A DNA stretch of 64,000 bases from Bacilli bacterium (GTDB lineage: Bacteria; Bacillota_I; Bacilli_A; RF39; UBA660), in contig JAFQQQ010000001.1 in the NCBI GenBank assembly GCA_017410525.1, forward strand, positions 1 through 64,000, written 5' to 3'. Numbering within the stretch: position 1 is the stretch's first letter; every line of letters starts with the position of its first letter. This document shows, in pieces, positions 13,968 to 28,856 of this stretch. Below the pieces are notes generated by a model. That model made no database searches and had not been told where the DNA came from. It saw only the letters and a program-made list of their open reading frames with translations. The position numbers were made by a program, and so were the translations under genes.

Positions 13968-15545
13968 ATGACATTATTTTTAATATCACTTATACCTTAT
14001 TTGATATTTACAATATTTAAAACAAAGAAATCATTTCATATGTTACAACAAAACTTTTATGATGATGATAAAAGATATTTTAGATGGATAATAACTAATA
14101 TATCTAAAATTGCTTATGAAAGTGATATATTATTTGTGCTTATTATTTGTACACTTTTCTTTGAAATCGGTGTTACCATAGGAGTATTCATAATACTTTA
14201 TGGACTTATATTTATTAGTTATAGAAAGAAAAAGGTGGATGCTAAAAAACCATTAGTAATAACATCTCGTGTAAAAAGATTATCATTCACAATGTTTTTT
14301 ATATATATTATAATGCTAATTCCTTTTATAGTTAATTTCAGTTATGATAATTTAATTTATTGCTATTTAATATTAGGTTTAGTTACTTACCTTAATTACT
14401 TTGTAGTAATGACAGCTAATGTTATAAATAAACCTATTGAAAAATGTGTTTATTTAAAATATAAACATCAAGCTTTAAAGAAACTAAAAAACATGAATAT
14501 ACCTGTTGTAGGTATTACAGGTAGTTATGGCAAAACAAGTAGTAAAAATATAATAAATGATATATTAAATGTTAAATTAAATTCATTTGCTACTCCTAAA
14601 AGTTTTAATACACCATATGGATTAATTAATTCAATAAATAATTATTTAGATAAGTTTAATGACATATTTATTGCTGAAATGGGAGCATTCAAAATAGGTG
14701 AGATTAAACAAAATTGTAAAATAGTTAAACCTAAATATGGTATAATAACTAGTATAGGTGAAGCGCATTTAGAATCATTTGGTTCACGCGAAAACATAAT
14801 GAAAGGTAAATTTGAATTAGTTGAAAGTTTACCTAAAGATGGCCTTGCTATATTAAACGGAGATGATGAGTATCAATTAAAATATCAAATAAAAAATAAA
14901 TGTGATGTTTTATGGATTGGTATTGATAATAAAGATGTAGATTTATATGCTACAAACATTAAATTATCAGGTAATGGAACAACATTTGATTGTGTATTTA
15001 AAGGTGATAAAAAGAAATATACATTTAATACTAAGTTGCTTGGTAAACATAATGTATATAATTTACTTGCTGGCATTCTTTTAGGTAGTGAATTAGGTCT
15101 TAGTATAGAAGAATTAAAAAGAGGTGTAAGTAGTGTTAAACCTATCGAACACCGTTTAGAATTAAAAAAATATGGTAATATTAATATAATAGATGATGCT
15201 TATAATTCAAATCCAGTAGGTTCTAAAATGGCAGTTGAAGTTTTAGGACTTATGGAAGGAACCAAAATAATAGTAACTCCAGGTATGATAGAATTAGGAC
15301 CTAAACAATATGAATTAAATCATAAATTTGGAGAATACATAAGTAAGGTTTGTGATTATGTAATATTGATAGGCGAGAAACAAAGTAAACCTATATTTGA
15401 TGGATTGTTAGATAATAATTTTGATAAGAAAAAAATATTTGTACTTAATGATGTCAGAGATGCTTTTCCACTTATGAATAGATTAGCTACAAAAGACACA
15501 TATGTACTTTTAGAAAACGATTTACCAGACGTATTTAATGAATAG
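13968..15545 (+). CDS. Membrane-anchored MurF-like Mur ligase
   Basis: A 525-residue protein. Residues ~1-155 hold about five transmembrane segments (FLISLIPYLIFTIF; LFVLIICTLFF; IGVFIILYGLIFI; FIYIIMLIPFIV; YCYLILGLVTYL). Residues ~170-525 are a MurF-type ATP-dependent amide ligase with P-loop GITGSYGKTS, a central EMGA motif, HRLELKKYG and DDAYNSNP. The family normally joins D-Ala-D-Ala to UDP-MurNAc-tripeptide. Here the soluble N-terminal UMP-binding domain is replaced by membrane helices. The adjacent ddl supports a MurF role. Ligase class is secure; the membrane-borne substrate is inference. Confidence 0.85.
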   Translation: MTLFLISLIPYLIFTIFKTKKSFHMLQQNFYDDDKRYFRWIITNISKIAYESDILFVLIICTLFFEIGVTIGVFIILYGLIFISYRKKKVDAKKPLVITSRVKRLSFTMFFIYIIMLIPFIVNFSYDNLIYCYLILGLVTYLNYFVVMTANVINKPIEKCVYLKYKHQALKKLKNMNIPVVGITGSYGKTSSKNIINDILNVKLNSFATPKSFNTPYGLINSINNYLDKFNDIFIAEMGAFKIGEIKQNCKIVKPKYGIITSIGEAHLESFGSRENIMKGKFELVESLPKDGLAILNGDDEYQLKYQIKNKCDVLWIGIDNKDVDLYATNIKLSGNGTTFDCVFKGDKKKYTFNTKLLGKHNVYNLLAGILLGSELGLSIEELKRGVSSVKPIEHRLELKKYGNINIIDDAYNSNPVGSKMAVEVLGLMEGTKIIVTPGMIELGPKQYELNHKFGEYISKVCDYVILIGEKQSKPIFDGLLDNNFDKKKIFVLNDVRDAFPLMNRLATKDTYVLLENDLPDVFNE

Positions 15546-15556
15546 GAGAGATGTAT

Positions 15557-16741
15557 ATGAAAATAAAAGTTGCAGTAATATTCGGTGGTGAAACAGTAGA
15601 ACACGAGGTAAGTGTTATTACTGCCGTACAAGCCATGGAACATATAAACCAAGATAAATATGAAATAGTACCAATCTATATAAGTAAAGATAGAATTTGG
15701 TATACTAGTCCAATGCTTATGGATATAGATGTGTATAAGGATTTTAATGATTTAAAAAGATATGCTAAACAAGTTGTATTAACTAAAATAGGTGATAAGT
15801 TTTATCTTCAAAACACAAAAGGATTATTTAAAAGAAATATAACTGATATAGATATTGCTTTTCCAATAGTTCACGGAAATAATGTAGAAGATGGAACACT
15901 TCAAGGATATTTAGATAGTGTAGGTATTCCTTATGTAGGAAGTAAAGTGCTTGGTAGTTCACTTGGACAAGATAAAGTAGTAATGAAACAAGTATTTAAA
16001 GATATGGGATTACCAATTGTTGACTATACTTGGTTCTTTGATAGTGAATATGCTGATGACTGTGAAGAGATATTTGGTAATGTAAAAAAAATAGGCTATC
16101 CAGTAATAGTTAAGCCTGCAACCCTAGGTAGTAGTGTAGGTATAACTTATGTTAAAGAAGAAAAAGAACTTGCTAATGCTATAGAAGAAGCAATGAAATA
16201 TGATGTTAAAGTAGTAGTAGAAAAAGCAGTTAAAAACTTAGTAGAAGTAAACTGTAGTGTACTTGGAAACTATTCGCATCAAGAAGCAAGTGTTATAGAA
16301 GAAGTTACTAGTGATGAAGAATTCTTAACTTATGCAGATAAATATATAGGTGGATCTAAGGGTAAATTAAAAGGACCTTCTAAAGGAATGGCAAGTGCTT
16401 CTAGAATTATTCCTGCAAGAATAAGTAAAGAAATGACAGAAAGTATACAAGAGACATCTAAACAAGCTTTTAAAGCACTTAATTTAGGTGGAGTATGTAG
16501 AATAGATTATCTTATAGATAAGAAAACTAATAAATATTATATAAATGAACCAAATACAATTCCTGGATCTTTAGCTTTCTATTTATGGGAAAAGACAGGT
16601 AAAAAATATGAAGACCTATTAGATGAAATGATAACTTTATGTATTAAAGATTATAAAAATAGAAGTAAAAAAGTTTATTCTTTTGAAAGCAACATTTTAA
16701 GCAATTATGGAATTAAGGGGTTAAAAGGAATGAAAAAATAA
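15557..16741 (+). CDS. ddl: D-alanine--D-alanine ligase
   Basis: A 394-residue ATP-grasp enzyme forming D-Ala-D-Ala for peptidoglycan. Visible motifs are IFGGETVEHEVSVITA (N-terminal substrate loop), KPATLGSSVG, and the C-terminal INEPNTIPGS with the metal-binding Glu and Asn. The loop FLTYADKY resembles the Tyr-containing loop of D-Ala-D-Ala enzymes rather than VanA-type D-lactate ligases. ATG 15557 is preferred to ATG 15551 because AGGAG (15544-15548) is 8 bases before it. That site overlaps the stop of the MurF-like gene, so they are coupled. Confidence 0.93.
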   Translation: MKIKVAVIFGGETVEHEVSVITAVQAMEHINQDKYEIVPIYISKDRIWYTSPMLMDIDVYKDFNDLKRYAKQVVLTKIGDKFYLQNTKGLFKRNITDIDIAFPIVHGNNVEDGTLQGYLDSVGIPYVGSKVLGSSLGQDKVVMKQVFKDMGLPIVDYTWFFDSEYADDCEEIFGNVKKIGYPVIVKPATLGSSVGITYVKEEKELANAIEEAMKYDVKVVVEKAVKNLVEVNCSVLGNYSHQEASVIEEVTSDEEFLTYADKYIGGSKGKLKGPSKGMASASRIIPARISKEMTESIQETSKQAFKALNLGGVCRIDYLIDKKTNKYYINEPNTIPGSLAFYLWEKTGKKYEDLLDEMITLCIKDYKNRSKKVYSFESNILSNYGIKGLKGMKK

Positions 16742-16766
16742 AAGGATTTAAATATCCTTTTTATTT
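16741..16766 (+). terminator. Intrinsic terminator after ddl
   Basis: AAAGGAT (16741-16747), loop TTAAAT, ATCCTTT (16754-16760), then TTATTT. The stem begins on the last base of the ddl stop codon. Confidence 0.75.
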
Positions 16767-16795
16767 GTAATTTTTAAATCTATTTTAAAAAAATC

Positions 16796-16824
16796 TTGAT
16801 TTATTTTCTTCTATACTTTATAAT
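16796..16824 (+). promoter_or_regulatory. Promoter of rny
   Basis: TTGATT (16796-16801), a 17-bp spacer and TATAAT (16819-16824). It leaves a leader of about 35 bases before the GGAGG site of rny. Confidence 0.8.
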
Positions 16825-16867
16825 AATTATAGAGTGTTAAAACTCGAATAGAAAGTGGAGGAATAGT

Positions 16868-18421
16868 ATGGAAAATATTATGAGCTCCATGTTGCTAGTC
16901 CTAGTTGGACTTATTGTTGGAATAATTGTAATGTTTATATTTAATCTTATCAGAAAAAATACTGCGACTAATAAAGCTGATAAGATTTTAGAGAAAGCTC
17001 GTATAGAAGGCGAAAGAATTAAAAAAGATTATATCGCTGAAGCAAAAAATGAAGCTAATGAATTAAAAATTAAAATTGATGAAGAAATAAAAGAGAAAAA
17101 GTCTGAAATAAAAGAATCAGAAAGTAGACTTAATACTCGTGAAGAAAATATTGAAAGAAGAGATCAAAATCTTCAAAAAAGAGAAAATTTGTTAGATGAA
17201 AAAGAAAAAAATATATTAGATAAACAAAAAGATATTCAAGAACAAGAAGCAAATGTGGAGAAAATTAAAGAAGAACAATTAAAACTTTTAGAAAGTATTA
17301 GTGGTTATTCCAAAGAAAAAGCTAAAGATTTAGTAATGAAAAAGGTAGAAGAATCTATGACTTTAGAAATTGCTGCATACATCAAAGAAAAAGAAGCAGA
17401 AGCTAAATTAGAAGTAGATAAAAAGTCTAAAAATATGTTAGTAGAAAGTATGCAAAAGTATGCAAGTGATGTTGTAGAAGAACAAACAGTAACTGTTGTT
17501 AATTTACCAAATGATGATATGAAAGGTCGTATAATTGGTAGAGAAGGTAGAAATATCCGTACAATAGAATCTGTAACAGGAGTGGATTTAATTATCGATG
17601 ATACTCCAGAAGCAATTGTTTTATCATCTTTTGATCCTTTAAGAAGAGAAATAGCTAGAATTACTATTGAATCTTTGATTAAAGATGGTAGAATACATCC
17701 TGCGAGAATTGAAGAATTATATGATAAAACTTGTAAGGATATGAAGAAAAAAATAATAGAATATGGACAAAATGCATTATTTGAATTAGGTATAACTAAA
17801 ATGGATCCAGAACTTATTGAGTTAATTGGTAGATTACAATTTAGAACAAGTTATGGACAAAATGCATTAAAACATTCTATGGAAGTTGCACAACTTGCTG
17901 GTATTATGGCAGGAGAACTTGGAGAAAATGAAATGTTTGCTAAAAGAGCGGGACTACTTCATGATATTGGTAAATCAATTGACCATGAGATTGAAGGAAG
18001 CCATGTTGAAATAGGAGCAAACCTTGCTAAAAAATATAAGGAAAGTGAAGTTGTTATAAATGCAATTGAATCACATCACGGAGATACAGAAGCAAAAAGT
18101 ATTATTGCAGAACTTGTCGCAATTGCAGATGCTTTATCAGCATCTCGTCCTGGAGCTAGAAATGATTCATTAGAAAATTATGTACAAAGATTACACGATT
18201 TAGAAAATATCGCTAATGATCAAAAAGGTGTAGATACAGCTTTCGCAATGCAAGCAGGTAGAGAACTTAGAGTAATTGTTAAACCAGAAGAAATAAATGA
18301 TTTAGAAAGTCATAAAGTTGCTCGTGATATTAAAAATCGTATTGAAGAAGAATTGCAATATCCCGGGACAATTAAAGTTACTGTAATAAGAGAAACAAGA
18401 GCAATTGAAGAAGCTAAATAG
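16868..18421 (+). CDS. rny: Ribonuclease Y
   Basis: A 517-residue membrane-tethered endoribonuclease that starts mRNA decay in Firmicutes. An N-terminal transmembrane helix (residues ~5-27) is followed by a long coiled coil (~35-150), a KH domain with [15 protein letters not shown] near 220, and an HD domain with [12 protein letters not shown] near 365. The length matches the family. GTGGAGG precedes ATG 16868. It is monocistronic, with its own promoter and terminator. Confidence 0.97.
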
Positions 18422-18436
18422 TTTCTTCTTTTTTTT
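18407..18436 (+). terminator. Intrinsic terminator of rny
   Basis: GAAGAAGCT (18407-18415), loop AAAT, AGTTTCTTC (18420-18428) with one G-U pair, then eight T residues. The stop codon TAG is at the loop/3'-arm junction. Confidence 0.85.
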
Positions 18437-18447
18437 CTTAAAAAGGC

Positions 18448-18476
18448 TTGTATTTATTAATAAAATATGATATTAT
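18448..18476 (+). promoter_or_regulatory. Promoter of rplS
   Basis: TTGTAT (18448-18453), 17 bp, TATTAT (18471-18476). Transcription would begin near 18483, giving a leader of about 65 bases. Confidence 0.65.
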
Positions 18477-18481
18477 TAATA

Positions 18482-18546
18482 ACGTGATCCGCTGATTGTA
18501 TAATTTAATGTTCATGATCATAGATTAGATAAAGGAGAGTGACATT
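18482..18546 (+). promoter_or_regulatory. Candidate L19 leader (ribosomal-protein autoregulation)
   Basis: The rplS leader contains a closing helix GTGATC (18484-18489) with GATCAT (18516-18521). It encloses CCGCTG and GTTCAT, which resembles the short L19 leader element of low-GC Gram-positives. Position directly upstream of rplS fits autoregulation by L19. The match is from memory of the element's form; a covariance-model search would settle it. Confidence 0.4.
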
Positions 18547-18900
18547 GTGAATTTAGTTGAAAAAATTACTAAAAAACAAATCAGAACTGATTTACCAGAA
18601 TTCAGAGTTGGAGATACAGTTAGAGTTGATATTAAAATTGATGAAACTGATGCTTCAGGTAAAAAGAAATCAAGAATTCAAGCTTTCGAAGGTTTAGTTA
18701 TGGCAATTCAAGGTTCTGGAATAAGTAAAACTTTTACAGTTAGAAAAGTTTCTGGAAACGTTGGAGTTGAAAAAACTTTACCAGTTAATTCACCAAGAAT
18801 TGATATGATAACTGTAGTTAGAAAAGGTAAAGTAAGACAAGCTAAATTAGGTTATATTAGAAAGTCTTCTAAAACACCAAAGATTAAAGAAAGAGTATAA
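18547..18900 (+). CDS. rplS: 50S ribosomal protein L19
   Basis: A 117-residue L19, which lies at the 30S-50S interface. The FRVGDTVRVDIKI and QAFEGLVMAIQGSG blocks and the C-terminal GKVRQAKLGYIRK are characteristic. The start is GTG 18547 after AAAGGAGAG. It is followed by lepB, then (after an insert) rbgA, the usual Bacilli order. Confidence 0.98.
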   Translation: MNLVEKITKKQIRTDLPEFRVGDTVRVDIKIDETDASGKKKSRIQAFEGLVMAIQGSGISKTFTVRKVSGNVGVEKTLPVNSPRIDMITVVRKGKVRQAKLGYIRKSSKTPKIKERV

Positions 18901-18901
18901 G

Positions 18902-18924
18902 ATAAGGCTTAAGCCTTATTTTTG
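18902..18924 (+). terminator. Terminator/attenuator between rplS and lepB
   Basis: Perfect palindrome ATAAGGCTT-AAGCCTTAT (18902-18919) followed by five T residues. It lies 14 bases before lepB, so some readthrough is expected. Confidence 0.75.
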
Positions 18925-18937
18925 TTAAGGTGATAAA

Positions 18938-19453
18938 ATGAAAAAAATTTTAAAAGAATTATATCCTTATGTAGTAATAGTTGTGGTAGTAGTTCTTTTT
19001 AGAACGTTTATAGCTACCCCTGTACGTGTTGATGGGTCATCTATGGATTCTACACTAAAAAATGGAGAAATACTTATATTAAATAAACTTGATAGAAGTT
19101 ATGAAAGATTTGATGTAGTCGTTGTAGATATAGAAGTAGATGGGAAAAAATCTAAACTAGTAAAAAGAATAATTGGATTACCAGGAGAATCTATAGAATA
19201 TAAAGATAATCAATTATATATAAATAATGAAGTTATAAAAGATGTCGCACCATCAAGAACAAATGATTTTTCATTAAAAGAGTTATATAACATAAATAAA
19301 CTTCCTGAAGATTGTTATTTTGTTATGGGGGACAATAGAAAATATTCAAGAGATAGTAGAGATTATACAGTGGGTATAATAAAAAAAGAAGATATAGTAG
19401 GTACTACCACATTAAGAATATTTCCTTTAGATAAAATAGGTAAATTTAATTAG
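18938..19453 (+). CDS. lepB: Type I signal peptidase
   Basis: A 171-residue membrane serine protease that removes signal peptides from exported proteins. One N-terminal transmembrane segment (VVIVVVVVLFRTF) is followed by the catalytic Ser35 in GSSMDSTL, the Lys76 general base in KRIIGLPGE, and MGDNRKYSRDSR. The length is typical of Gram-positive SipS-like enzymes. AAGGTGATAAA precedes ATG 18938. Confidence 0.96.
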   Translation: MKKILKELYPYVVIVVVVVLFRTFIATPVRVDGSSMDSTLKNGEILILNKLDRSYERFDVVVVDIEVDGKKSKLVKRIIGLPGESIEYKDNQLYINNEVIKDVAPSRTNDFSLKELYNINKLPEDCYFVMGDNRKYSRDSRDYTVGIIKKEDIVGTTTLRIFPLDKIGKFN

Positions 19454-19473
19454 TGCTAGAAATAGTGCTTTTT
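19452..19473 (+). terminator. Weak terminator after lepB (G-U rich stem)
   Basis: AGTGCT (19452-19457) and AGTGCT (19464-19469) pair in RNA with two central G-U pairs around the loop AGAAAT, followed by T residues. It looks like a direct repeat in DNA but can fold as RNA. Confidence 0.5.
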
Positions 19474-19506
19474 ATTATTTTGTGGTATAATTTAGGTGGT
19501 AGATTT

Positions 19507-19557
19507 ATGAGTGCAAATAGAGGGAAAGAAGGATTTATAAAAAACAAATTAATATAG
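19507..19557 (+). CDS. Possible 16-residue peptide or gene remnant
   Basis: ATG 19507 is preceded by TTAGGTGGT and an extended -10 (TGG TATAAT, 19486-19491), and encodes MSANRGKEGFIKNKLI before TAG. It sits exactly where the lepB-rbgA continuity is broken. It may be a leader peptide or the 5' remnant of a gene cut by the insertion. No matching 3' part was found downstream. Confidence 0.35.
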   Translation: MSANRGKEGFIKNKLI

Positions 19558-19633
19558 ATTAGCGCACAGGAAAAATTTATATTAAAGACTTTAAATATAA
19601 TAAATGAACAATAATTTTGAAGGAGGACTTTAT

Positions 19634-20419
19634 ATGTCATATCAAAGTAGAAAAATTAGGGAATTATTTGAATCGTTAAAAGTTTATTCGGACAATAAAG
19701 ATATATATATATCTAAAATAATTGAGAATGTGATGTTTATTCTTATTAATAGAAGAGCAGTTAAAACAGATAATTTAGATAAAAGAAGAATAGAGTCTTT
19801 TTCAAATTATATAAAAGATATTTTAAATCAGCTTTATGAAGATTATATTGAAAGAAAAGGAAGTAAGAACAATGTTGGACAAGACATTGAATATGTTGGT
19901 TTGGGTTTTACTTTTATTACATTCAGAGTAGGAGATAATGTTATAAAATTTGGTAAAAGTGAACAAACCATTCCTCCGACCACATTGGAATCTCGATATC
20001 AAGTTCCTCTTTATATTAGAGAAAGTTATGAAATAACTAATAGAATTCATTTTAGAGTTGAAGTTGCACCTTATGTAGATACCTCTAATATTACTTATGA
20101 AGATTTATATAAAACTTATAGTAACATTAGAGATTTAGGATATATTTGGAATGATCCTAAAGAAGAAAATATGGGTAGAATCATTAATGTTGATGGCTGT
20201 AAGATTGGTGGTAAAACTTATTTGCCATCACAACAATTAAAAAAAGGTGACTTGGTTTTAATAGATTTAGATGATATTGCTTATGTTGGTGAGGAAACTA
20301 GCGATATTATATTAGAGGAAATATCTACTATGTCATATAACAGAAATGTATATATATTTGAAACTAGACATATGAAAGAAAAAGGGGAAAAAATAACTAA
20401 TAAAAACATTAAATGGTGA
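19634..20419 (+). CDS. Uncharacterised protein-kinase-fold protein
   Basis: A 261-residue protein. Residues ~1-80 are a helical, charged N-terminal region. Residues ~85-220 show kinase-like landmarks in order: a glycine-rich VGLGFTFITFRVG strand, Lys105 in NVIKFGK, a catalytic loop D-x-K-x-x-N at 174-179 (WNDPKEENMG), and a metal-binding DLDD at 211-214. This matches protein/small-molecule kinases and suggests phosphotransfer. ATG 19634 is chosen because AGGAGG (19621-19626) precedes it; the in-frame ATG at 19604 lies upstream of that site. The stop is TGA. The substrate is unknown, and its position beside an OLD-type nuclease suggests an accessory or defence role (inference). Confidence 0.6.
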   Translation: MSYQSRKIRELFESLKVYSDNKDIYISKIIENVMFILINRRAVKTDNLDKRRIESFSNYIKDILNQLYEDYIERKGSKNNVGQDIEYVGLGFTFITFRVGDNVIKFGKSEQTIPPTTLESRYQVPLYIRESYEITNRIHFRVEVAPYVDTSNITYEDLYKTYSNIRDLGYIWNDPKEENMGRIINVDGCKIGGKTYLPSQQLKKGDLVLIDLDDIAYVGEETSDIILEEISTMSYNRNVYIFETRHMKEKGEKITNKNIKW

Positions 20420-20709
20420 AGATTTATTTTTAAAATTAACAAACATATTATAAAACTTAAATATTAATCAAAAAATGTTATTGTTAAAACAAAAAGGAAG
20501 TGATTAAAATGGAAAATCGACAAAATTCTACAAATATCAACTGGGTAATGGAAGAATAAGAAAAAATACTCACAATTCCTTATAAAATAGGACAAAAATT
20601 ATTATTTCTTTTTACATTATTTTGATTATTCTAACTAAAAAAAATGATAAAAATGGGGTAATGGAAAAACAAGAAAAACTTTTTTTAAAATGTTGGGAAG
20701 TGATTAATA
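20420..20709 (+). other. Non-coding gap with duplicated start-region sequence
   Basis: Very AT-rich, with no full gene. A 16-codon ORF (20509-20559) follows GGAAGTGATTAA, the same ribosome-site string that precedes the next gene. A degenerate direct repeat (GGGTAATGGAAGAATAAG at 20543-20560; GGGTAATGGAAAAACAAG at 20656-20673) lies between. This looks like a decayed duplication of the upstream region of the OLD-type gene, possibly from a lost small gene. Confidence 0.4.
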
Positions 20710-22431
20710 ATGGATGAACAATTAATAAAAGATGAGAAGAAAACTCCATCTGTTACTATAAAAAATATTGAATTTAATGAAGGAACAAAAATCTCGTTAG
20801 ATCCAGATGATATTGTTGTTTTTGTTGGAGCAAATAATGTTGGTAAAAGTAGAGCATTGAAAGATATAATTGCAGACATAACTGAATCAACTATTCAAAA
20901 TGTAATAATAAATAAAATTGAATATAATGTAGAAAACTTTGAATGTGAGAGTATGAAAAATTTTTTTGCCACACATTTTACGAAAGACCAAAATAATCAT
21001 TATAATGTTCAAATGTCAGATGTATCTTCTCATTGTTATAGTGATGATAACTTTAAAAATATTGATGAAACATCAAAATACTTTTATAGAGTATTATTTA
21101 CCTTTTTATCAACAGAAAGTAGATTAGATATCACTAAACCAATAAGACTTAATTATTCAATTGATAGATATAATTTTAACATAATGAATATCCTTGAAAC
21201 TAACAAAGAAGCAATAACATTATTAAATAGATTTTTATTATTAGGGTTTAATAAAGCAGTTGAAATAGATAATAAATTACAAAATGGTGATTTCATTAAG
21301 AAATATAAAATCGGAAATGAACAAGAAATAAAAGATATTATTGAACTTGACAAAAGAAGCTCAGCCAAAAAATTAAAGATGTTAGAGAATTTAAACGAAC
21401 AAGGTGATGGTATTAGAAGTGCTGTTGCTGTTTTAGCATCTCTAATTGTTAATGAACATTCATTATATTTAATAGATGAGCCCGAAACTTTTTTACATCC
21501 TCCTCAAGCTAGACTACTTGGGAAAAACATTGTTGAATTATCAAAAAACAAACAATGTTTTATATCAACACATAATATTGATCTAATAAGGGGATTATTA
21601 GAAAACGGTTCGTCTAGAATAAAGATAGTAAAAATTGACAGAATGGATAATACAAATAAATTTCATGTTTTAGATAATGAATCAATTACTAAAATTGCTA
21701 ATGATAAGAATTTAAAATATTCAAATATTCTTAATGGCTTATTTTATAAACAAGTGGTATTGTGTGAAAATGAAAGTGACTGTAAATTTTACTCAGTTAT
21801 ATTAGAACATCTAGACAGTAATACATATCAAAATACATTGTTTTGTGCAGTAGGTGGAAAAGACCAATTTAAATTAATAATTCCTTTATTGAAAAAATTA
21901 GGAATAAATTATTTGATTGTTGCTGATATTGATTTAATAAATGATAAAACAAAATTAAAGCAGTTAATAAATTCTATAGAAAATGATGAATATAATAAGA
22001 TAGCTAGTTTACACAATGATTTTTTAAATGAATTTCAGGAAAAAAGTGATTCTTTGATAAAAAAACAAGCAACCATTAAACAAGAAATAGAAGAAATCTT
22101 TAATACTGACGAATATATGTCAACAGAAGCAGCAGAAAAGATTAAAGCTATATTAAAGAAAATTAATAGTTTAAAACTATTAAAAGAAGGTGGAAAATTT
22201 ATTCTCCCTGCTGGAGAGTGCACAATTAAATTTAATCAAATTCAACAATTTTTAAAGGAAAATAGTATATATATTGTGGAATGCGGAGAAATAGAGAGAT
22301 TTATTCCTGAAATTGATATGCATGGAAATTCATGGGTAGAAGCAGTCTTTGAAAAATATAAAGATTTAAATGATAGTAAGTATAATAGTGTAAAAGATTT
22401 TATTAAGGAAATATTTAAAATACCTAATTAG
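20710..22431 (+). CDS. OLD-family ATPase-TOPRIM nuclease
   Basis: A 573-residue protein of the OLD (overcoming lysogenisation defect) class. The ABC/SMC-like ATPase has Walker A GANNVGKS (40-47), signature GDGIRSAVAV (~232-241), Walker B LYLIDEPE (D256, E257) and H-loop STHNID (~288). A TOPRIM nuclease domain follows with Glu353 (VLCENESD) and Asp406/Asp408 (VADIDL). OLD proteins cut DNA and several protect against phage (for example GajA). No UvrD-type helicase partner is adjacent, so this resembles the stand-alone class or an unlisted pairing with the upstream kinase-fold gene. ATG 20710 follows GGGAAGTGATTAAT. The serine recombinase begins 21 bases later. Confidence 0.85.
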   Translation: MDEQLIKDEKKTPSVTIKNIEFNEGTKISLDPDDIVVFVGANNVGKSRALKDIIADITESTIQNVIINKIEYNVENFECESMKNFFATHFTKDQNNHYNVQMSDVSSHCYSDDNFKNIDETSKYFYRVLFTFLSTESRLDITKPIRLNYSIDRYNFNIMNILETNKEAITLLNRFLLLGFNKAVEIDNKLQNGDFIKKYKIGNEQEIKDIIELDKRSSAKKLKMLENLNEQGDGIRSAVAVLASLIVNEHSLYLIDEPETFLHPPQARLLGKNIVELSKNKQCFISTHNIDLIRGLLENGSSRIKIVKIDRMDNTNKFHVLDNESITKIANDKNLKYSNILNGLFYKQVVLCENESDCKFYSVILEHLDSNTYQNTLFCAVGGKDQFKLIIPLLKKLGINYLIVADIDLINDKTKLKQLINSIENDEYNKIASLHNDFLNEFQEKSDSLIKKQATIKQEIEEIFNTDEYMSTEAAEKIKAILKKINSLKLLKEGGKFILPAGECTIKFNQIQQFLKENSIYIVECGEIERFIPEIDMHGNSWVEAVFEKYKDLNDSKYNSVKDFIKEIFKIPN

Positions 22432-22452
22432 ATTAATATAAATGGAGATATA

Positions 22453-23673
22453 ATGAAAAAATTTAAAGTAGCAGGATATATTAGATTATCTAAAGAAGAT
22501 AAAATTAAAGATGAATCAAATAGTGTTACTAATCAAAAATTAATAATTACTTCATATATTGAAAAAAATGAAGATTTAGAACTTATTGATTTTTATATAG
22601 ATGATGGATATTCAGGTACAACATTTGATAGACCAGAATATAAAAGAATGTTTAAAGATATAGTAGATGGACAAGTAAATACAGTAATAGTAAAAGATTT
22701 GTCAAGGTTTGGAAGAAATCATATACAATCAGATGATTATATAGAAAACATTCTTCCTGGATATAATGTTAGATTTATTTCAATCATTGATGAGATAGAT
22801 AGTTTTAAAAATCCAAAATCAGTAAGTAGTATTGCTGTTCCATTAAAGAATTTAATGAATGACCAATATGCAAGAGATATTTCTGAAAAGGTTAGGTCAA
22901 CTTTAAAAGTAAAGCAATTAAATGGAGAATTTATTGGCGTAACAGCACCTTATGGGTATTTAAAAAATCCTAAAGATAAACATAAATTCATTATAGATAA
23001 AGAAGCATCTTATATTGTAAAGAAAATATTTAATATGATACTTTTAGGTAAGAGCAGAAAAGAGATAGCAGAACATTTAAATAATAAAAATGTGCTAACT
23101 CCAAGTTTGTATAAATTAAGTAAAGAAAATACAACTAGTGAAGATTTAATATATTCTAAGAAATGGAATTCTGAAATAGTAAATAGAATATTAAGAAATG
23201 AAACATATACAGGAACATTAATTCAAAATATTAAAACAAAACCGAATTATAGAACTGATAAGTTAATTGATGTAAATAAAGATGAATGGATAATAACTGA
23301 AAATCATCACGAACCAATAATAAGTAGAGATAAATTTGATAAAGTACAACAAATATTAAATAGAAAAACAAAGGTAAATAAAAATGCTGATATTGATTTG
23401 TTTTCAGGTTATTTAAAATGTTCACATTGTGGAAGTGGTTTAATAATCAAAAAGAGTAAGAATCAAGTATATTACTATTGTAGTTCTTATATAAAAGAAA
23501 AAAGTTGTTTGAAATATTCTATAAATAAAAAGAAATTAGAACAAATGGTAAAAGATGAACTAATTAAAAACTTTAATATAGAACACTTAGATAGAAAAGT
23601 ATTAAATGAATTAATAGATATGATTTATATTATAGATAAAAATAATATAAAAATTGAATTTAAAAATATATGA
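22453..23673 (+). CDS. Large serine recombinase (site-specific integrase)
   Basis: A 406-residue recombinase. The resolvase domain starts AGYIRLSKED, with the catalytic Ser at residue 13 and VKDLSRFGRNH near residue 80. A 'recombinase' DNA-binding domain (~160-290) and a zinc ribbon (CSHCGSGL ... YYYCSS ... C, ~325-355) follow. It is short for the family because the C-terminal coiled coil is reduced, but no key motif is missing. GGAGATATA precedes ATG 22453 and the stop is TGA. It is cotranscribed with the OLD-type gene and probably mobilised the block. Confidence 0.9.
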   Translation: MKKFKVAGYIRLSKEDKIKDESNSVTNQKLIITSYIEKNEDLELIDFYIDDGYSGTTFDRPEYKRMFKDIVDGQVNTVIVKDLSRFGRNHIQSDDYIENILPGYNVRFISIIDEIDSFKNPKSVSSIAVPLKNLMNDQYARDISEKVRSTLKVKQLNGEFIGVTAPYGYLKNPKDKHKFIIDKEASYIVKKIFNMILLGKSRKEIAEHLNNKNVLTPSLYKLSKENTTSEDLIYSKKWNSEIVNRILRNETYTGTLIQNIKTKPNYRTDKLIDVNKDEWIITENHHEPIISRDKFDKVQQILNRKTKVNKNADIDLFSGYLKCSHCGSGLIIKKSKNQVYYYCSSYIKEKSCLKYSINKKKLEQMVKDELIKNFNIEHLDRKVLNELIDMIYIIDKNNIKIEFKNI

Positions 23674-23731
23674 TATAATATATAAGAAAACTTTTAATTA
23701 GTTTTATAAAAACAAGTAGGGGGAAAATCAA

Positions 23732-24208
23732 ATGCAAGATATACAAAATGGATGTTATGATGTTTGTACTAACTGTTTTACTGGTGGAAATTGTTGTTCT
23801 TCGTTTGATAGAGTTAATGCCCCAGTATTAAATAAACAAGAATTAATACAACTAAGAGAAGTTTTGAAAAGTGATAAATTCTATGATGTTGTTGATGATA
23901 ATTTGTATAAAATAAGATTAAATAATAACGAATGTATTTTTTTAAAAAATGGAAGATGTTCGATTTATAATTACAGACCATTAGATTGTAAATTATACCC
24001 ATTTGATATTATAAAAAAGGATTCAAAATATTATCTTATTTTATATCAGTTAGGGTGCATTGAAGAATATACAGTAGTAGATAATTTTGATTGTCTTGAT
24101 GATTTGGTTGATAAGATAAAACCTTGGATAATAGACTATACAGATGATAGAAATTATACAAAAATGAAAAGATTAAAATATAAAGTAATAAAAGAAATAA
24201 AGGAGTGA
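23732..24208 (+). CDS. YkgJ-family cysteine-cluster protein
   Basis: A 158-residue protein with the YkgJ/CxxCC pattern: CTNCFTGGNCC near residues 13-23, then FLKNGRCSIYNYRPLDCKLYPF near 71-92. The clustered cysteines are thought to bind Zn or an Fe-S centre; no reaction is established. The GTAGGGGGAAA ribosome site precedes ATG 23732, and a TGA TATAAT extended -10 (23674-23679) gives it its own promoter. It ends in TGA four bases before rbgA. It may be part of the host operon rather than the insert. Confidence 0.8.
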   Translation: MQDIQNGCYDVCTNCFTGGNCCSSFDRVNAPVLNKQELIQLREVLKSDKFYDVVDDNLYKIRLNNNECIFLKNGRCSIYNYRPLDCKLYPFDIIKKDSKYYLILYQLGCIEEYTVVDNFDCLDDLVDKIKPWIIDYTDDRNYTKMKRLKYKVIKEIKE

Positions 24209-24212
24209 TAAT

Positions 24213-25088
24213 ATGAGCGAAGAAAAAAGTTTTCCTAAGACTTCGATTAACTGGTATCCAGGTCATATGGCTAAGACAAAACGATTAATAAGTGAAAATA
24301 TAAATTTAATAGATGTTGTATATGAAGTAATAGATGCAAGAATGCCTTATTCTTCTAAAATAAAAGACATAGATAATTATATAAAAAATAAAAAAAGAAT
24401 ACTTATTATGACTAAAATAGATTTATGTGATATGGATGAAACTAATAAATGGATTAAGTATTATGAATCTTTGGGACATACTGTAATTGGTTTAAACTTA
24501 GAAAAAAATACTAGTTTAAATAATTTAATAAACATAACTAATAAACTTATGGAAGAAGAAAATCAAAAAAGATTAGATAAAGGCATGTCTAAAAGAAAAA
24601 TAAGGGCTTTAGTGGTGGGAATACCTAATGTAGGTAAAAGCACTTTAATAAATAGATTAGTTGGTAAAAAAGTGGCTAATGTAGGTAATAAGCCTGGAGT
24701 AACTAAAAATCTTAATTGGATAAGAGTAAACAGTGATATAGAGCTTATGGATTCACCAGGTATACTTTGGCCAAAACTTGATGAAGAAAAAGTTGCTTTA
24801 AATCTTGCTAGTTTAACTGCTATAAAAGAAGAAATACTTCCTATAGATAGAGTAGTTATTTATATATTAAATACTTTAGATAAACACTATAACGATATAT
24901 TAAAAGAAAGATATGGTATAGATAAAGTAGATAATGAAGAAATAGAAGAAACTTTAGAAGCAATTGGTAGAAAAAGAGGTTGCTTAGTTCGTGGTGGCGT
25001 AGTTGATTACGATAAAGTTTATAATGTAGTTATAAATGATATAAAAACAGGAGCATTGAAGGGAATTACATTTGATAGATATGAATAA
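24213..25088 (+). CDS. rbgA: Ribosome biogenesis GTPase RbgA (YlqF)
   Basis: A 291-residue circularly permuted GTPase required for late assembly of the 50S subunit. The N-terminal INWYPGHMAKTKR is diagnostic. The G4 motif TKIDL comes before the P-loop GIPNVGKST (~130), and DSPG follows. AAGGAGTGAT precedes ATG 24213. Its place after rplS-lepB is the conserved one, now separated by the inserted block. Confidence 0.96.
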   Translation: MSEEKSFPKTSINWYPGHMAKTKRLISENINLIDVVYEVIDARMPYSSKIKDIDNYIKNKKRILIMTKIDLCDMDETNKWIKYYESLGHTVIGLNLEKNTSLNNLINITNKLMEEENQKRLDKGMSKRKIRALVVGIPNVGKSTLINRLVGKKVANVGNKPGVTKNLNWIRVNSDIELMDSPGILWPKLDEEKVALNLASLTAIKEEILPIDRVVIYILNTLDKHYNDILKERYGIDKVDNEEIEETLEAIGRKRGCLVRGGVVDYDKVYNVVINDIKTGALKGITFDRYE

Positions 25089-25446
25089 AAATATGTTAGT
25101 TTTAGCCTATTTAGGTGACAGTATATATGAAACTTATATTAGGAAATATTTAATAGATAAAGGTATTTCAAAAGTGAAAGAATTACAAAGTGAATCTATA
25201 AAATATGTAAGTGCAAGAGCGCAAGCCGATTATTTAAAAGAAATGATTAATAACAATTTTTTTGACGAACAAGAATTAAATATAATTACATGCGCTAGAA
25301 ATCATAAAAGTAATCATAAACCTAAAAATTGTGATATAATTACATATAAGAATGCCACTGGATTAGAAGCTTTAATAGGATATTTATATTTAGAAGAAAA
25401 AGTAGATAGAATAGATAAAATAGTAAACTATATACTAGGGAGGTAA
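25081..25446 (+). CDS. mrnC: Mini-ribonuclease 3
   Basis: A 121-residue catalytic domain of RNase III without the dsRNA-binding domain. It matures 23S rRNA ends. LAYLGDSIYETYIRKYL carries the acidic signature, and GLEALIGYLYLE the second acidic pair. The ATG at 25081 overlaps the end of rbgA. A TTG at 25072 in frame, seven bases after AAGGGAA, is an alternative start adding three residues. The following rlmB and sigH confirm the Bacillus-like order. Confidence 0.9.
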   Translation: MNKNMLVLAYLGDSIYETYIRKYLIDKGISKVKELQSESIKYVSARAQADYLKEMINNNFFDEQELNIITCARNHKSNHKPKNCDIITYKNATGLEALIGYLYLEEKVDRIDKIVNYILGR

Positions 25447-25448
25447 TT

Positions 25449-26144
25449 ATGCTTGTATTTGGAAAAAATGTTGCTTTAGAATATTTAAATAGTGATAAAA
25501 AAATATATAAGGCGTTTATACAAAATAATTTTAATGATTACGATTTAATAAATAAGGTAAAATATAAAAATATAAAATTTCAAACACTCACTAAGTTTGA
25601 TATGGATAAAAAAGTTAGTGGATTACACCAAGGTATAATTCTTGATGTAGAAGATTATAAGTATGCTGATATATATGATATTATAAGTGAAAATGATAGT
25701 TTAATTGTAATGCTTGATCATATAGAGGATCCTCATAACTTTGGTGCTATTATACGTTCGTGTGAAGCGGCAGGAGTAGAAGGAATAATTATTCCTACAG
25801 ATAGAAGTGTAGAAGTAAATTCAACAGTAATAAAAACTAGCGTAGGTACTACAGAAAAAATGAAAATTGCTAGAGTTACTAATTTAAATAGTACGATTAA
25901 AATTTTAAAAGATAAAGGCTATTGGATATTTGGTACTGATATGGACGGAACTGATTATACTAAGTTAGATTACAAAGGTAAAACTTGTATAATATGTGGC
26001 AATGAAGGATCTGGTATGTCTAAACTGGTAAGAGAAAATTGTGATTTTATTGCTAGTATACCAATGCAAGGAGAAGTAAATAGTTTAAATGCATCAGTTG
26101 CTACAGCAATAATAATTTTTGAAGCAGTTAAACAAAGGATGTAA
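25449..26144 (+). CDS. rlmB: RlmB-like 23S rRNA 2'-O-methyltransferase (SpoU family)
   Basis: A 231-residue SPOUT-fold methyltransferase that methylates a ribose in 23S rRNA or tRNA with SAM. An N-terminal substrate-binding region precedes DHIEDPHNFGAIIRSCEAAG (motif 1), CGNEGSGMS (motif 2) and IPMQGEVNSLNASVATA (motif 3, trefoil knot). GGGAGG lies in the tail of mrnC two bases upstream of its stop. The exact target nucleotide is inferred from synteny only. Confidence 0.92.
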   Translation: MLVFGKNVALEYLNSDKKIYKAFIQNNFNDYDLINKVKYKNIKFQTLTKFDMDKKVSGLHQGIILDVEDYKYADIYDIISENDSLIVMLDHIEDPHNFGAIIRSCEAAGVEGIIIPTDRSVEVNSTVIKTSVGTTEKMKIARVTNLNSTIKILKDKGYWIFGTDMDGTDYTKLDYKGKTCIICGNEGSGMSKLVRENCDFIASIPMQGEVNSLNASVATAIIIFEAVKQRM

Positions 26145-26163
26145 AAATAGAAAGGAAGCAATT

Positions 26164-26763
26164 ATGGAATATAAAGATTTCAATGATTATGAGCTATTAA
26201 GTTATATAGCTGAAGGTAATGAAGAAGCAAACAATATAATTATAAAAAAATATGAACCATTAATAAATAAAATAGCCATAAAAATGCTTCCATATTGTAA
26301 AAATAATGGTTTAGAAAAAAGTGATTTAGTTCAAGAAGGAATGATAGGACTAAATCATGCTATAGAAAGATATCATGAACAAAAAGACGTGTTATTTTAT
26401 ACGTATGCTAAAAAATGTATAGAAAGAAAGATAATAAGTGTAGTAATATCTTCCAATAGAAATAAAAATAAAATATTAAATGAATCAATATCCTATGATG
26501 ATGATGAAAATCTACTTCTTAGATTTATTAAATCAGAAACTCCTAGTCCAGAAGAAGAAATAATAAGTATAGAGTTAGAAGAACGCTTATTACAAAAAAT
26601 AAAAGGAGTATTAACCGATTTAGAAGATCAAGTGTTCTCGCTTCTTATATGTGGATTTAAATATAAAGAAATATCTAAAATATTAGATAAAGATATGAAA
26701 TCTATAGATAATACTATACAAAGGATAAAAGTAAAAATAAAAAATATTTTAAAAGATAAATAA
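26164..26763 (+). CDS. sigH: SigH-like RNA polymerase sigma factor
   Basis: A 199-residue sigma-70-family factor. Region 2 contains DLVQEGMIGLNHAIERY near residue 60, and region 4 a helix-turn-helix (YKEISKILDKDMKSIDNTIQRIK) at the C-terminus. Position after mrnC-rlmB is that of sigH in Bacillus, where it drives transition-state and competence/sporulation genes and transcribes spo0A. Spo0A is encoded 7 kb downstream. ATG 26164 follows AAAGGAAG; the upstream in-frame start at 26119 lies inside rlmB and is rejected. Confidence 0.85.
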   Translation: MEYKDFNDYELLSYIAEGNEEANNIIIKKYEPLINKIAIKMLPYCKNNGLEKSDLVQEGMIGLNHAIERYHEQKDVLFYTYAKKCIERKIISVVISSNRNKNKILNESISYDDDENLLLRFIKSETPSPEEEIISIELEERLLQKIKGVLTDLEDQVFSLLICGFKYKEISKILDKDMKSIDNTIQRIKVKIKNILKDK

Positions 26764-26798
26764 AAAATATGATATAAATATATTAACAAAATTGTTCA

Positions 26799-26826
26799 AA
26801 AAGCACTATTTAGTGCTTTTTTCTTT
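26799..26826 (+). terminator. Intrinsic terminator after sigH
   Basis: AAAAGCACTA (26799-26808) and TAGTGCTTTT (26811-26820) form a perfect stem with a very small loop, followed by a T-rich tract. Confidence 0.85.
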
Positions 26827-26867
26827 TTTAAAAATGTTGTATAATTATTATAGATTGTAGGTGGAAC

Positions 26868-27830
26868 ATGAATTTATTTAAACAAATTTATAAACAAATA
26901 AAAAAATACGATAAAATAGTAATTGCTAGACACGTAGGTGCTGATCCCGATGCTTTAGGTAGTACATTAGGATTAAAGGAAGTAATATTAAATACTTTTC
27001 CCAACAAGCAAGTTTATGTAGTAGGTGCTCCTGCTGCTAGACATAGATATATAGGTATTCTTGATAGATTTACGGATGATATGTATGAAGATTCATTGTT
27101 AATAGTATTAGATACCCCTAATGTCAGCAGAATAGATGGGGTAGATATAGATAAATTTAAATATAAAATAAAAATAGATCATCATCCATTTATAGAAAAG
27201 TATGCTGATATAGAGTTAATAGATGAGACATCTAGTAGTGCTTCTCAATTGATTGTTGAATTAGTAGTAAATACTAAATTAAAATTAAATAAAGAAGCCG
27301 CAGAAAAATTATTTATAGGCATAGTAGGGGATACGAATAGATTTATGTATTATTATACAACTCCTAAAACTTTTGATTTAGTATCTTATATGTTAGAACA
27401 AACTAATTTAGATTTTACAAATTTATATGAAAATATGTATATGAGAACACTCCATGATTTAAGATTTCAAAGCTACGTTATTAATAATCTAACACTCACA
27501 GAAGACGGGTTTGGTTACTTAAAACTAGAACAGGATGTTTTAGATGAATATGGAATTGATGCCTCAACTGCGGCTAACGTAGTAAATGTATTAACTTATA
27601 TAGATGGTATGTATGCATGGGCAATATTTGCTTATGATAAGGGTAATGATAATATAAGAGGATCCATTAGATCTAGGGGACCAATTATAAATGAAGTTGC
27701 TGCTAATTATAATGGTGGAGGCCATATATATGCGTCAGGTGTTAGATTAAAAGATTTTGATGTAGCAAATGATATAATAACTGATTTAAATGAAGTTTGT
27801 AAAAAATATAAAGAGGAAAAGAATATTTAG
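26868..27830 (+). CDS. nrnA: DHH-family phosphoesterase (NrnA-like oligoribonuclease/pAp phosphatase)
   Basis: A 320-residue DHH/DHHA1 protein that degrades short oligonucleotides and 3',5'-bisphosphate nucleotides. Metal motifs are GADPDALGS near residue 25, IVLDTPN, KIDHHP near 105 and GDTNRF. The DHHA1 domain ends in NGGGHIYASG near 290. It starts at ATG 26868 after GTAGGTGG. The pilin-like gene follows after 8 bases. Confidence 0.93.
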   Translation: MNLFKQIYKQIKKYDKIVIARHVGADPDALGSTLGLKEVILNTFPNKQVYVVGAPAARHRYIGILDRFTDDMYEDSLLIVLDTPNVSRIDGVDIDKFKYKIKIDHHPFIEKYADIELIDETSSSASQLIVELVVNTKLKLNKEAAEKLFIGIVGDTNRFMYYYTTPKTFDLVSYMLEQTNLDFTNLYENMYMRTLHDLRFQSYVINNLTLTEDGFGYLKLEQDVLDEYGIDASTAANVVNVLTYIDGMYAWAIFAYDKGNDNIRGSIRSRGPIINEVAANYNGGGHIYASGVRLKDFDVANDIITDLNEVCKKYKEEKNI

Positions 27831-27838
27831 AGGTGAAT

Positions 27839-28777
27839 ATGAAAAATAAGGGTTTTACTTTAATAGAATTATTAGGAGTAATAATAATTTTAGCTTTACT
27901 TATGATAATAGTATTTCCAAGCATAGTTAATTCAGTTAAAAATTCATCTAATAAAACAGACGATTTAACAAAGGAATTGATATATAATGCTGCTGATTTA
28001 TTTATAGATCAACACATAAATGATTTTCCTAAAATGAGTGGAAGTAAATACTCAATATTGTTAAGTGATTTAGTAGAAGAAGGTCTGTTAACTGGCCCTA
28101 TAAAACTATCGGGTAGTGATGCTGACATAACAAATAACAAATGTATTCAAGTAACTTATCAAAGTGATTATATATATGAATTAAAAGATAGTGGTACTTG
28201 CAAAGAAATAATAAAGTATATTTTACCTAGTGAATATAAACAAGTAGAATATATAAGTGGTATACAGCCAAATGGAACAACGAGGACAGCGGGCATAGAT
28301 TTAAATTGTACTTGGCAAGAAGTAAGCAAAATAAATCTTAAGATGCAGTTTTTAACACTCTCAGAAAACCAATATGGATCTATGATATTCAAAAGTAAAA
28401 CAGCAAGTGTTGAAAGTTCAACTCCATATATTTACAGCGCAACAAACGAGATAAGTTTTGTAGGAATTGGTGGTAGTGTAACGAATAATTATACTAAAGA
28501 ACAACTTACAAATAAGGGAACAAAGAAATTAGAAATATTAATTAATGCTAATACTGATTCTTCAAATATATATTTTGGCAGTTGGAATGATGTAACTTTT
28601 TCTAAAAATTGGCAAATTGAATATTTAAAAGTATATAATACTGAAAATAAATTAATTAGAAATTTAGTTCCTTGTTATCGTATATCAGATGATGTAATAG
28701 GCTTGTATGATTTGATAGATGGTAATTTCTATACTAATTCAGGTACAGGTGTTTTTGAAAAAGGAAATAATGTTTAG
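27839..28777 (+). CDS. Type IV pilin-like protein with C-terminal lectin-like (LamG/ConA-type) domain
   Basis: A 312-residue protein. The N-terminus MKNKGFTLIELLGVIIILALL is a prepilin signal with a class III cleavage site after KG and the conserved Glu5 of the mature form. A hydrophobic helix follows. Residues ~130-312 (LPSEYKQVEYI ... LVPCYRISDDVIGLYD ... FYTNSGTGVF) match the 'PSEY-QVEYI' concanavalin-like domain common on surface proteins of gut Firmicutes. It is a likely surface or pseudopilus-tip adhesin. No pilus assembly genes are nearby, so a remote prepilin peptidase would be needed. ATG 27839 is preferred to the GTG at 27833, which lies in the ribosome site. Confidence 0.8.
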   Translation: MKNKGFTLIELLGVIIILALLMIIVFPSIVNSVKNSSNKTDDLTKELIYNAADLFIDQHINDFPKMSGSKYSILLSDLVEEGLLTGPIKLSGSDADITNNKCIQVTYQSDYIYELKDSGTCKEIIKYILPSEYKQVEYISGIQPNGTTRTAGIDLNCTWQEVSKINLKMQFLTLSENQYGSMIFKSKTASVESSTPYIYSATNEISFVGIGGSVTNNYTKEQLTNKGTKKLEILINANTDSSNIYFGSWNDVTFSKNWQIEYLKVYNTENKLIRNLVPCYRISDDVIGLYDLIDGNFYTNSGTGVFEKGNNV

Positions 28778-28802
28778 TCAATGAATTGTCATTGACTTTT
28801 TA
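28776..28802 (+). terminator. Intrinsic terminator after pilin-like gene
   Basis: AGTCAATGA (28776-28784), loop ATTG, TCATTGACT (28789-28797), then T residues to about 28801. It begins within the stop codon. Confidence 0.9.
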
Positions 28803-28856
28803 TTATAAAATATAGATTTTGTAATAAAAACATGATAAAATTATTATGGTGACGAT

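What the first reader, a model, noticed from the sequence alone, without database searches (positions are those of the whole stretch)
19454..23731. Accessory island pairing a kinase-fold protein, an OLD-type nuclease and a serine recombinase at a split housekeeping locus
In Bacilli, rplS, lepB and rbgA lie close together; here about 4.7 kb separates lepB from rbgA. The insert holds only a kinase-fold protein, an ATPase-TOPRIM nuclease of the OLD class (a class with several phage-defence members) and a large serine recombinase at the right edge. There is no cargo for transfer or replication. A phosphotransferase beside an OLD nuclease is not a pairing I recognise from named systems (Gabija uses a UvrD helicase; PARIS uses separate ATPase and TOPRIM proteins). 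It is the best candidate in this window for an undescribed mobile defence module.
Basis: partly seen in the sequence, partly recalled or inferred. Interest (0 to 1): 0.75.

Follow-up and report, generated by a model that had tools for sequence, protein, structure and literature searches.

The report
OLD-nuclease cassette inserted at rbgA start
A 3.7-kb mobile element, made of a single-gene OLD-type nuclease that is probably a phage defence, a serine recombinase and one small gene, has jumped into the very beginning of the essential gene rbgA and rebuilt that gene with a new start, while the neighbouring kinase-like gene lies outside the element and is not its partner.

Summary
The genes are real, but the proposed kinase plus OLD module is not supported. 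Between the two genes (20491-20544) lies a relic of an rbgA start (MENRQNSTNINW; 47/50 nt identical to a congener's rbgA start). It is the left attachment site of a serine-recombinase element; the right site is in the start of the present rbgA (24246-24254). The element is 3,710 bp: OLD nuclease, serine recombinase, a CxxCxxCC (YkgJ-like) protein and a replacement for the first ~14 codons of rbgA. The kinase-fold gene lies outside. It belongs to a divergent family of lone genes, and none of 78 surveyed OLD loci (window apart) has one nearby. The OLD protein is a Class 1 (stand-alone) type with intact motifs. The architecture recurs: congener G011 has a 4,427-bp element at the same site with a 46%-identical recombinase and other cargo, and three other genera have long serine recombinases directly upstream of rbgA. 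The 5' end of rbgA is a known target of tyrosine-integrase ICEs (Tn5253), but I found no serine-recombinase user in the literature searched. The short recombinase lacks the coiled-coil domain that enforces directionality. Anti-phage function is inferred, not shown.

The parts
18938..19453 (+). lepB, signal peptidase I; resident left flank
   Evidence: in outgroup G066 a lepB-like ORF lies directly upstream of rbgA
19509..19559 (+). relic of the coiled-coil gene that follows lepB in most congeners (MSANRGKEGFIKNKLI* versus MNGNRGAKGSIKDRLISMLYR); not part of the element
   Evidence: sequence comparison
19634..20419 (+). kinase-fold protein, 261 aa; outside the element; retains K105, D174, N179, D211/D213
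   Evidence: (alignment A2)
20491..20544 (+). relic of an earlier rbgA 5' end (Shine-Dalgarno plus MENRQNSTNINW); host side of attL
   Evidence: 47/50 nt identical to G006 rbgA start, 44/50 to G001; 41/44 identical upstream of the core, 16/50 downstream
20536..20570 (+). attL: ATCAACTGG followed by the element arm GTAATGGAAGAATAAG; crossover within the shared AACTGG
20647..20678 (+). second, 81%-identical copy of the attL/arm sequence, 113 bp inside the element; unexplained
   Evidence: repeats D5 and D14
20710..22431 (+). Class 1 OLD-type nuclease, 573 aa; Walker A GANNVGKS, Walker B LIDEPE, TOPRIM E353, D406xD408
22453..23673 (+). serine recombinase, 406 aa, catalytic Ser13, zinc ribbon present, coiled-coil insertion absent
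23732..24208 (+). CxxCxxCC (YkgJ-like) protein, 158 aa; element cargo
24213..24254 (+). element-borne replacement of the rbgA start (MSEEKSFPKTSINW); its end is attR (ATTAACTGG at 24246-24254)
   Evidence: against G005, 14/46 identical upstream of the core and 47/50 downstream
20545..24254 (+). whole integrated element, 3,710 bp
24213..25088 (+). rbgA, ribosome-assembly GTPase; target gene, reading frame intact

Best explanation
The finding covers two unrelated things. From 20545 to 24254 there is a minimal integrative element. A short serine recombinase recombined the element's attP with attB inside about codons 11-14 of an earlier rbgA (ATCAACTGG|TATCC). The cut-off 5' end of the old rbgA stayed on the left, and the element's right end supplied a new Shine-Dalgarno, start codon and first ~14 codons in frame, so the essential gene stayed open (anatomy shown; reaction inferred). 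The cargo is a Class 1 OLD ATPase-TOPRIM nuclease, most likely a single-gene anti-phage or anti-element defence that is triggered by infection and cleaves nucleic acid (inferred from the family), and a CxxCxxCC protein of unknown role. The recombinase lacks the coiled-coil that blocks attL x attR recombination in other serine integrases, so excision probably needs no directionality factor; the element has no obvious one (inferred). The kinase-fold gene was already upstream of rbgA and is a separate accessory gene.
For: The relic of an rbgA start lies between the kinase and OLD genes, 47/50 nt identical to the rbgA start of G006, and similarity ends at the core. The present rbgA switches from unrelated to near-identical at the same core: against G005, 14/46 identical upstream and 47/50 downstream. 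Independent copy: G011 has an rbgA-start relic, RhuM, a 46%-identical serine recombinase, KilA-N and a new rbgA start, 4,427 bp between the cores. In G023 a related recombinase plus KilA-N with an rbgA-start cassette sits away from rbgA, and similarity to G011 breaks at AACTG. A serine recombinase lies within 1.5 kb upstream of rbgA in 5 of 28 readable loci (window, G011, G018, G023, G034) against 0.03 expected. The reconstructed attP is partly palindromic around the core: window 10/15 pairs, P = 0.0015; G011 8/15, P = 0.035. Lone OLD and lone kinase. Coiled-coil loss: alignment and tail-to-tail match, with the published delta-CC behaviour (PMC3783163).
Against: No excised circle, empty-site strain or read evidence; the relatives are draft assemblies. 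The centre for the attP symmetry test was picked after looking, and a first test that joined the arms 2 bp wrong was not significant. A second att-like copy 113 bp inside the element (20647-20678) is unexplained. Anti-phage activity of this OLD is untested. In published work the delta-CC mutant of the Listeria (LI) integrase excises promiscuously but does not integrate efficiently (PMC3783163), so how a recombinase without the coiled-coil integrates is open.
Confidence: 0.83

Rival explanations
1. One reading: kinase and OLD form one undescribed two-gene defence module, moved together by the recombinase.
For: Same strand, 290 bp apart, in the same variable gap.
Against: The attL relic lies between them. 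No co-occurrence in 78 OLD loci or in 11 kinase-homologue loci. The nearest OLD (55%) is alone.
Confidence: 0.04
2. Kinase and OLD are two stacked insertions at the same rbgA hotspot: the kinase came with an earlier element whose right end supplied the MENRQNSTNINW start and which later lost its recombinase; the OLD element then landed on that start. (Compatible with the best explanation; it concerns only the origin of the kinase gene.)
For: Stacking is seen in G011, where a decayed KilA-N and an older rbgA start precede attL, and in G010, where an rbgA-start relic follows KilA-N. MENRQNS is a longer start than those of G031 and G066.
Against: The same start type in G006 follows a different gene. 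No att relic was found left of the kinase. Kinase homologues elsewhere are not at rbgA.
Confidence: 0.3
3. The rbgA-start relic is a chance match or a small tandem duplication rather than an attachment site.
For: Serine-integrase cores are short; the region is about 75% A+T (base composition).
Against: 50-nt match at 94% identity to an orthologous start, including the Shine-Dalgarno; abrupt ends at the core; the same layout in G011.
Confidence: 0.03
4. The OLD protein serves the element or the host in another way (for example DNA maintenance or excluding rival elements at rbgA) rather than acting against phages.
For: One archaeal OLD family member acts in cell-cycle progression (PMC12796447 abstract). 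Class 1 OLD defence is shown for very few members (PMC10568477; PMC13261556).
Against: PADLOC's Old model is the best match (E = 2.3e-22); the family is patchy and carried by plasmids and islands.
Confidence: 0.25

Closest known systems
Class 1 OLD nucleases (P2 Old, T. scotoductus OLD, E. coli YbjD/OldB)
   Same: Single-gene ATPase plus TOPRIM; conserved Walker and TOPRIM acidic residues; best PDB fold match is T. scotoductus OLD 6p74, E = 3.5e-11
   Different: Only 14% identical to T. scotoductus OLD in the structural alignment; carried by a serine-recombinase element at rbgA
Tn5253-type ICEs at the 5' end of rbgA in streptococci and enterococci (PMC6079316, PMC8571831, PMC4701971)
   Same: Same target: the first codons of rbgA, with the gene's start restored by the element
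   Different: Those use a tyrosine integrase and conjugation genes and leave the RbgA N-terminus essentially unchanged; here a serine recombinase, no transfer genes, and the first ~14 codons are replaced by a different sequence
Staphylococcal cassette chromosome (SCC, CcrA/CcrB)
   Same: Serine recombinase plus cargo without conjugation genes, stacking at one housekeeping gene (stacking here); the recombinase matches NCBIfam CcrB at E = 1.4e-28, below its cut-off
   Different: One recombinase, not a pair; 5' end of rbgA instead of the 3' end of rlmH (the rlmH detail from general knowledge)
Gabija (GajA), retron-Eco8, PARIS
   Same: OLD-class ATPase/TOPRIM fold
   Different: No UvrD-like helicase, no reverse transcriptase, ATPase and TOPRIM in one chain

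Membership tests
Class 1 OLD nuclease | N-terminal ABC ATPase and C-terminal OLD-type TOPRIM in one protein | tested here: met
   AAA_21 E = 1.4e-10 and OLD-like_TOPRIM E = 2.6e-9, both above cut-off; fold match to 6p74
Class 1 OLD nuclease | Walker motifs and TOPRIM acidic residues conserved | tested here: met
   G40, N42-N43, G45-S47, D256-E257 at least 90% conserved; E353, D406, D408 invariant in 26 homologues
Class 1 OLD nuclease | Occurs as a single gene without a fixed partner | tested here: met
   No neighbour family recurs in more than 3 of 78 loci, apart from split pieces of OLD itself
Class 1 OLD nuclease | Anti-phage activity | not testable with these tools
   Needs expression and plaque assay
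Gabija | Adjacent GajB UvrD/PcrA/Rep-like helicase | tested here: not met
   No helicase among the neighbouring genes
Retron (ATPase-TOPRIM type) | Adjacent reverse transcriptase | tested here: not met
   No reverse transcriptase among the domain hits for the gap genes or recognisable among the ORFs at 15000-30000
PARIS | Separate AriA ATPase and AriB TOPRIM proteins | tested here: not met
   Both domains in one 573-aa protein
Serine-recombinase (LSR) integrative element | Resolvase, Recombinase and Zn-ribbon domains with catalytic serine | tested here: met
   S13, R85 invariant
Serine-recombinase (LSR) integrative element | Flanking attL and attR sharing a short core, with the target gene split | tested here: met
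   AACTGG core, rbgA relic at attL and rbgA body at attR
Serine-recombinase (LSR) integrative element | Coiled-coil insertion in the zinc-ribbon domain (typical of directional LSRs, not of every member) | tested here: not met
   About 110 residues absent against the 522-528 aa homologues, C-terminal tail retained
SCC element | ccr genes of the CcrA/B/C family at rlmH | tested here: not met
   CcrA and CcrB models match far below cut-off; target is rbgA
ICE / IME | Relaxase or other mobilisation gene | tested here: not met
   None among the four ORFs in the gap

The most novel reading that the evidence does not exclude
The 5' end of rbgA in this bacterial family is a cassette platform run by natural coiled-coil-less serine recombinases. 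Cassettes with and without their own recombinase (OLD, RhuM, KilA-N, DinD/BRO-like, DUF1016-like genes) stack upstream of rbgA, are moved in trans, and each carries an interchangeable rbgA start, so that an essential GTPase acts as the anchor, much as rlmH does for SCC.
Probability: 0.3. Interest if true: 0.7.

Novelty: new variant of a known kind. Interest (0 to 1): 0.47.

Why it matters
It shows a very small, self-contained carrier for a defence nuclease and gives precise ends, which makes mobility directly testable. A serine recombinase that uses the start of an essential ribosome-assembly gene and swaps its first codons parallels the tyrosine-integrase ICEs of streptococci. A natural recombinase lacking the coiled-coil is a ready test of the current model of directionality control. 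It also warns that two neighbouring genes in a variable gap need not form a system.

Tried and rejected
Kinase plus OLD as a system: rejected. Relatives of the kinase in phage and plasmid collections: no match. OLD in phages: no match; in viral contigs: none confirmed. OLD as Gabija, retron or PARIS: no partner genes. A first attP symmetry test with wrongly joined arms was not significant; the corrected one is. A first run at reading rbgA loci looked at one strand only and was redone. A motif search for the element arm TGATTACGA across loci gave extra copies in the G011 gap, one beside a full att-like site at 7745-7790, and one upstream of rbgA in G004, but also matches in coding sequence (11 exact against 3.0 expected), so it is only suggestive.
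Full report
OBSERVATION. The window lies on a 145-kb contig of a 1.04-Mb, 10-contig assembly. lepB ends at 19453 and rbgA starts at 24213. The gap holds four genes on the + strand: a kinase-fold protein (19634-20419), an OLD-type ATPase/TOPRIM protein (20710-22431), a serine recombinase (22453-23673) and a CxxCxxCC protein (23732-24208). No transfer or replication gene is present. The OLD protein matches AAA_21 and OLD-like_TOPRIM above the curated cut-offs, PADLOC's Old model best (E = 2.3e-22), and the T. scotoductus OLD structure best by fold. The kinase-fold protein has no family match above a cut-off; its model (pLDDT 77.5) matches only protein kinases among the leading hits, with low TM-scores, and its kinase-like K, D, N and D positions are largely conserved in 12 homologues.

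WHERE THE ELEMENT REALLY ENDS. The sequence between the kinase and the OLD gene contains GGAAGTGATTAAAATGGAAAATCGACAAAATTCTACAAATATCAACTGG, which reads MENRQNSTNINW. This is the start of an rbgA gene: 47 of 50 nt are identical to the rbgA start of congener G006 and 44 of 50 to that of G001. Upstream of the core AACTGG the relic is 41/44 identical to G006; downstream it is 16/50, which is chance. At the other end, the rbgA gene in use begins MSEEKSFPKTSINWYPGHM. Against G005, whose RbgA is 94% identical, the first 46 nt before the core are 14/46 identical and the 50 nt after it are 47/50. Both junctions share AACTGG and lie 3,710 bp apart. This is what one site-specific crossover inside rbgA would leave: the old 5' end on the left, the gene body with an element-borne 5' end on the right. 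The kinase gene is to the left of attL, outside the element.

INDEPENDENT COPIES. Congener G011 shows the same structure with other cargo: an rbgA-start relic (MSNEEKSFQKTNINW), a RhuM-like gene, a 235-aa protein, a 46%-identical recombinase, a KilA-N-like gene and a new rbgA start (MSNEEKNFQKASINW), 4,427 bp between cores. Upstream of its attL is a decayed KilA-N and the end of an older insertion, so insertions stack. G010 has an rbgA-start relic after a KilA-N gene. In G023 a related recombinase and KilA-N with an rbgA-start cassette lie away from rbgA, and similarity to G011 stops at AACTG, which shows that the start cassette belongs to the element. Long serine recombinases lie directly upstream of rbgA in G018, G023 and G034. 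In all, 5 of 28 readable rbgA loci have a serine recombinase within 1.5 kb upstream, against 0.03 expected. Nine of 13 congeneric rbgA contigs break within 1.1 kb upstream, against about 1 expected (P about 3e-8), as expected for a repeat-rich variable site. RbgA N-termini before INWYPGHM differ in length and sequence between genomes, while some more distant members have short ones (MTNINWYPGHM in G031, MNNIHWYPGHM in G066).

THE KINASE AND THE OLD PROTEIN ARE NOT A PAIR. Eleven relatives carry a kinase-family homologue, in unrelated contexts such as between lon and gmk, before obgE, or near tex. Of 1,017 ORFs around the OLD loci surveyed, the kinase profile hits only the window's own. Among 78 OLD loci no neighbour family recurs in more than three, apart from split OLD genes. 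The nearest OLD (55% identical, G437) is a lone gene in a surface-polysaccharide locus. OLD homologues on plasmids also stand alone or beside plasmid genes. Gene names in neighbour contexts are my reading of the sequences, not curated annotation.

THE RECOMBINASE. The 406-aa recombinase and two relatives keep the catalytic and zinc-ribbon residues but lack about 110 residues present in the 522-528 aa homologues; the C-terminal tail still aligns (the tail match is clear for the window's protein against two of three long homologues and weaker for the others). In the Listeria (LI) integrase the coiled-coil inserted in the zinc ribbon supports attP x attB synapsis and blocks attL x attR; its deletion gives promiscuous intramolecular excision but poor integration (PMC3783163). 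I infer that this element excises without a directionality factor; how it integrates is open. The reconstructed attP is partly palindromic about the core (window P = 0.0015, G011 P = 0.035), but the centre was chosen after inspection.

MECHANISM, SHOWN AND INFERRED. Shown: element ends, rbgA-start replacement, cargo, recurrence at the site, absence of the pair elsewhere. Inferred: that the recombinase catalyses the reaction, that the OLD protein defends against phages, that the CxxCxxCC gene is cargo of the element (it is within the ends and absent from 57 other genomes).

COMPARISON. Class 1 OLD proteins are defined by isolated context (PMC10568477); E. coli YbjD is a recent member with anti-phage phenotypes on induced expression (PMC13261556). 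The 5' end of rbgA is a known target of Tn5253-like ICEs with a tyrosine integrase, which restore the coding sequence by duplicating the site (PMC6079316; PMC8571831; PMC4701971). The papers I could search did not describe serine recombinases there, but that library is incomplete. I therefore file this as a new variant of a known kind: a serine-recombinase element at a known tyrosine-integrase hotspot, with replacement of the target's first codons and a single-gene OLD cargo.

Noticed in passing
window 19509-19559: Relic (MSANRGKEGFIKNKLI*) of a coiled-coil gene that follows lepB in most congeners; it has been lost here.
   Followed up: partly
window 20647-20678: Second att-like copy 113 bp inside the element; its arm is also partly complementary to the attR arm (inverted repeat I11). 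Unexplained.
   Followed up: partly
L182 7745-7790 (G011): Full att-like site just after the RhuM gene, inside the G011 element: the RhuM gene may be a separate cassette without its own recombinase.
   Followed up: partly
rbgA-upstream loci L029, L031, L183, L193-L195: RhuM, DinD/BRO-like and DUF1016-like genes repeatedly occupy the slot just upstream of rbgA in congeners.
   Followed up: partly
L191 3931-4461 (G015): A DinD-like gene whose end runs into the RhuM-like motif AAEIIYN, as if the two families had recombined.
   Followed up: no
window 27833-28777: Pseudopilin-like protein (GFTLIELLGVIIILALL) with a long C-terminal extension after the pilin-like region.
   Followed up: no
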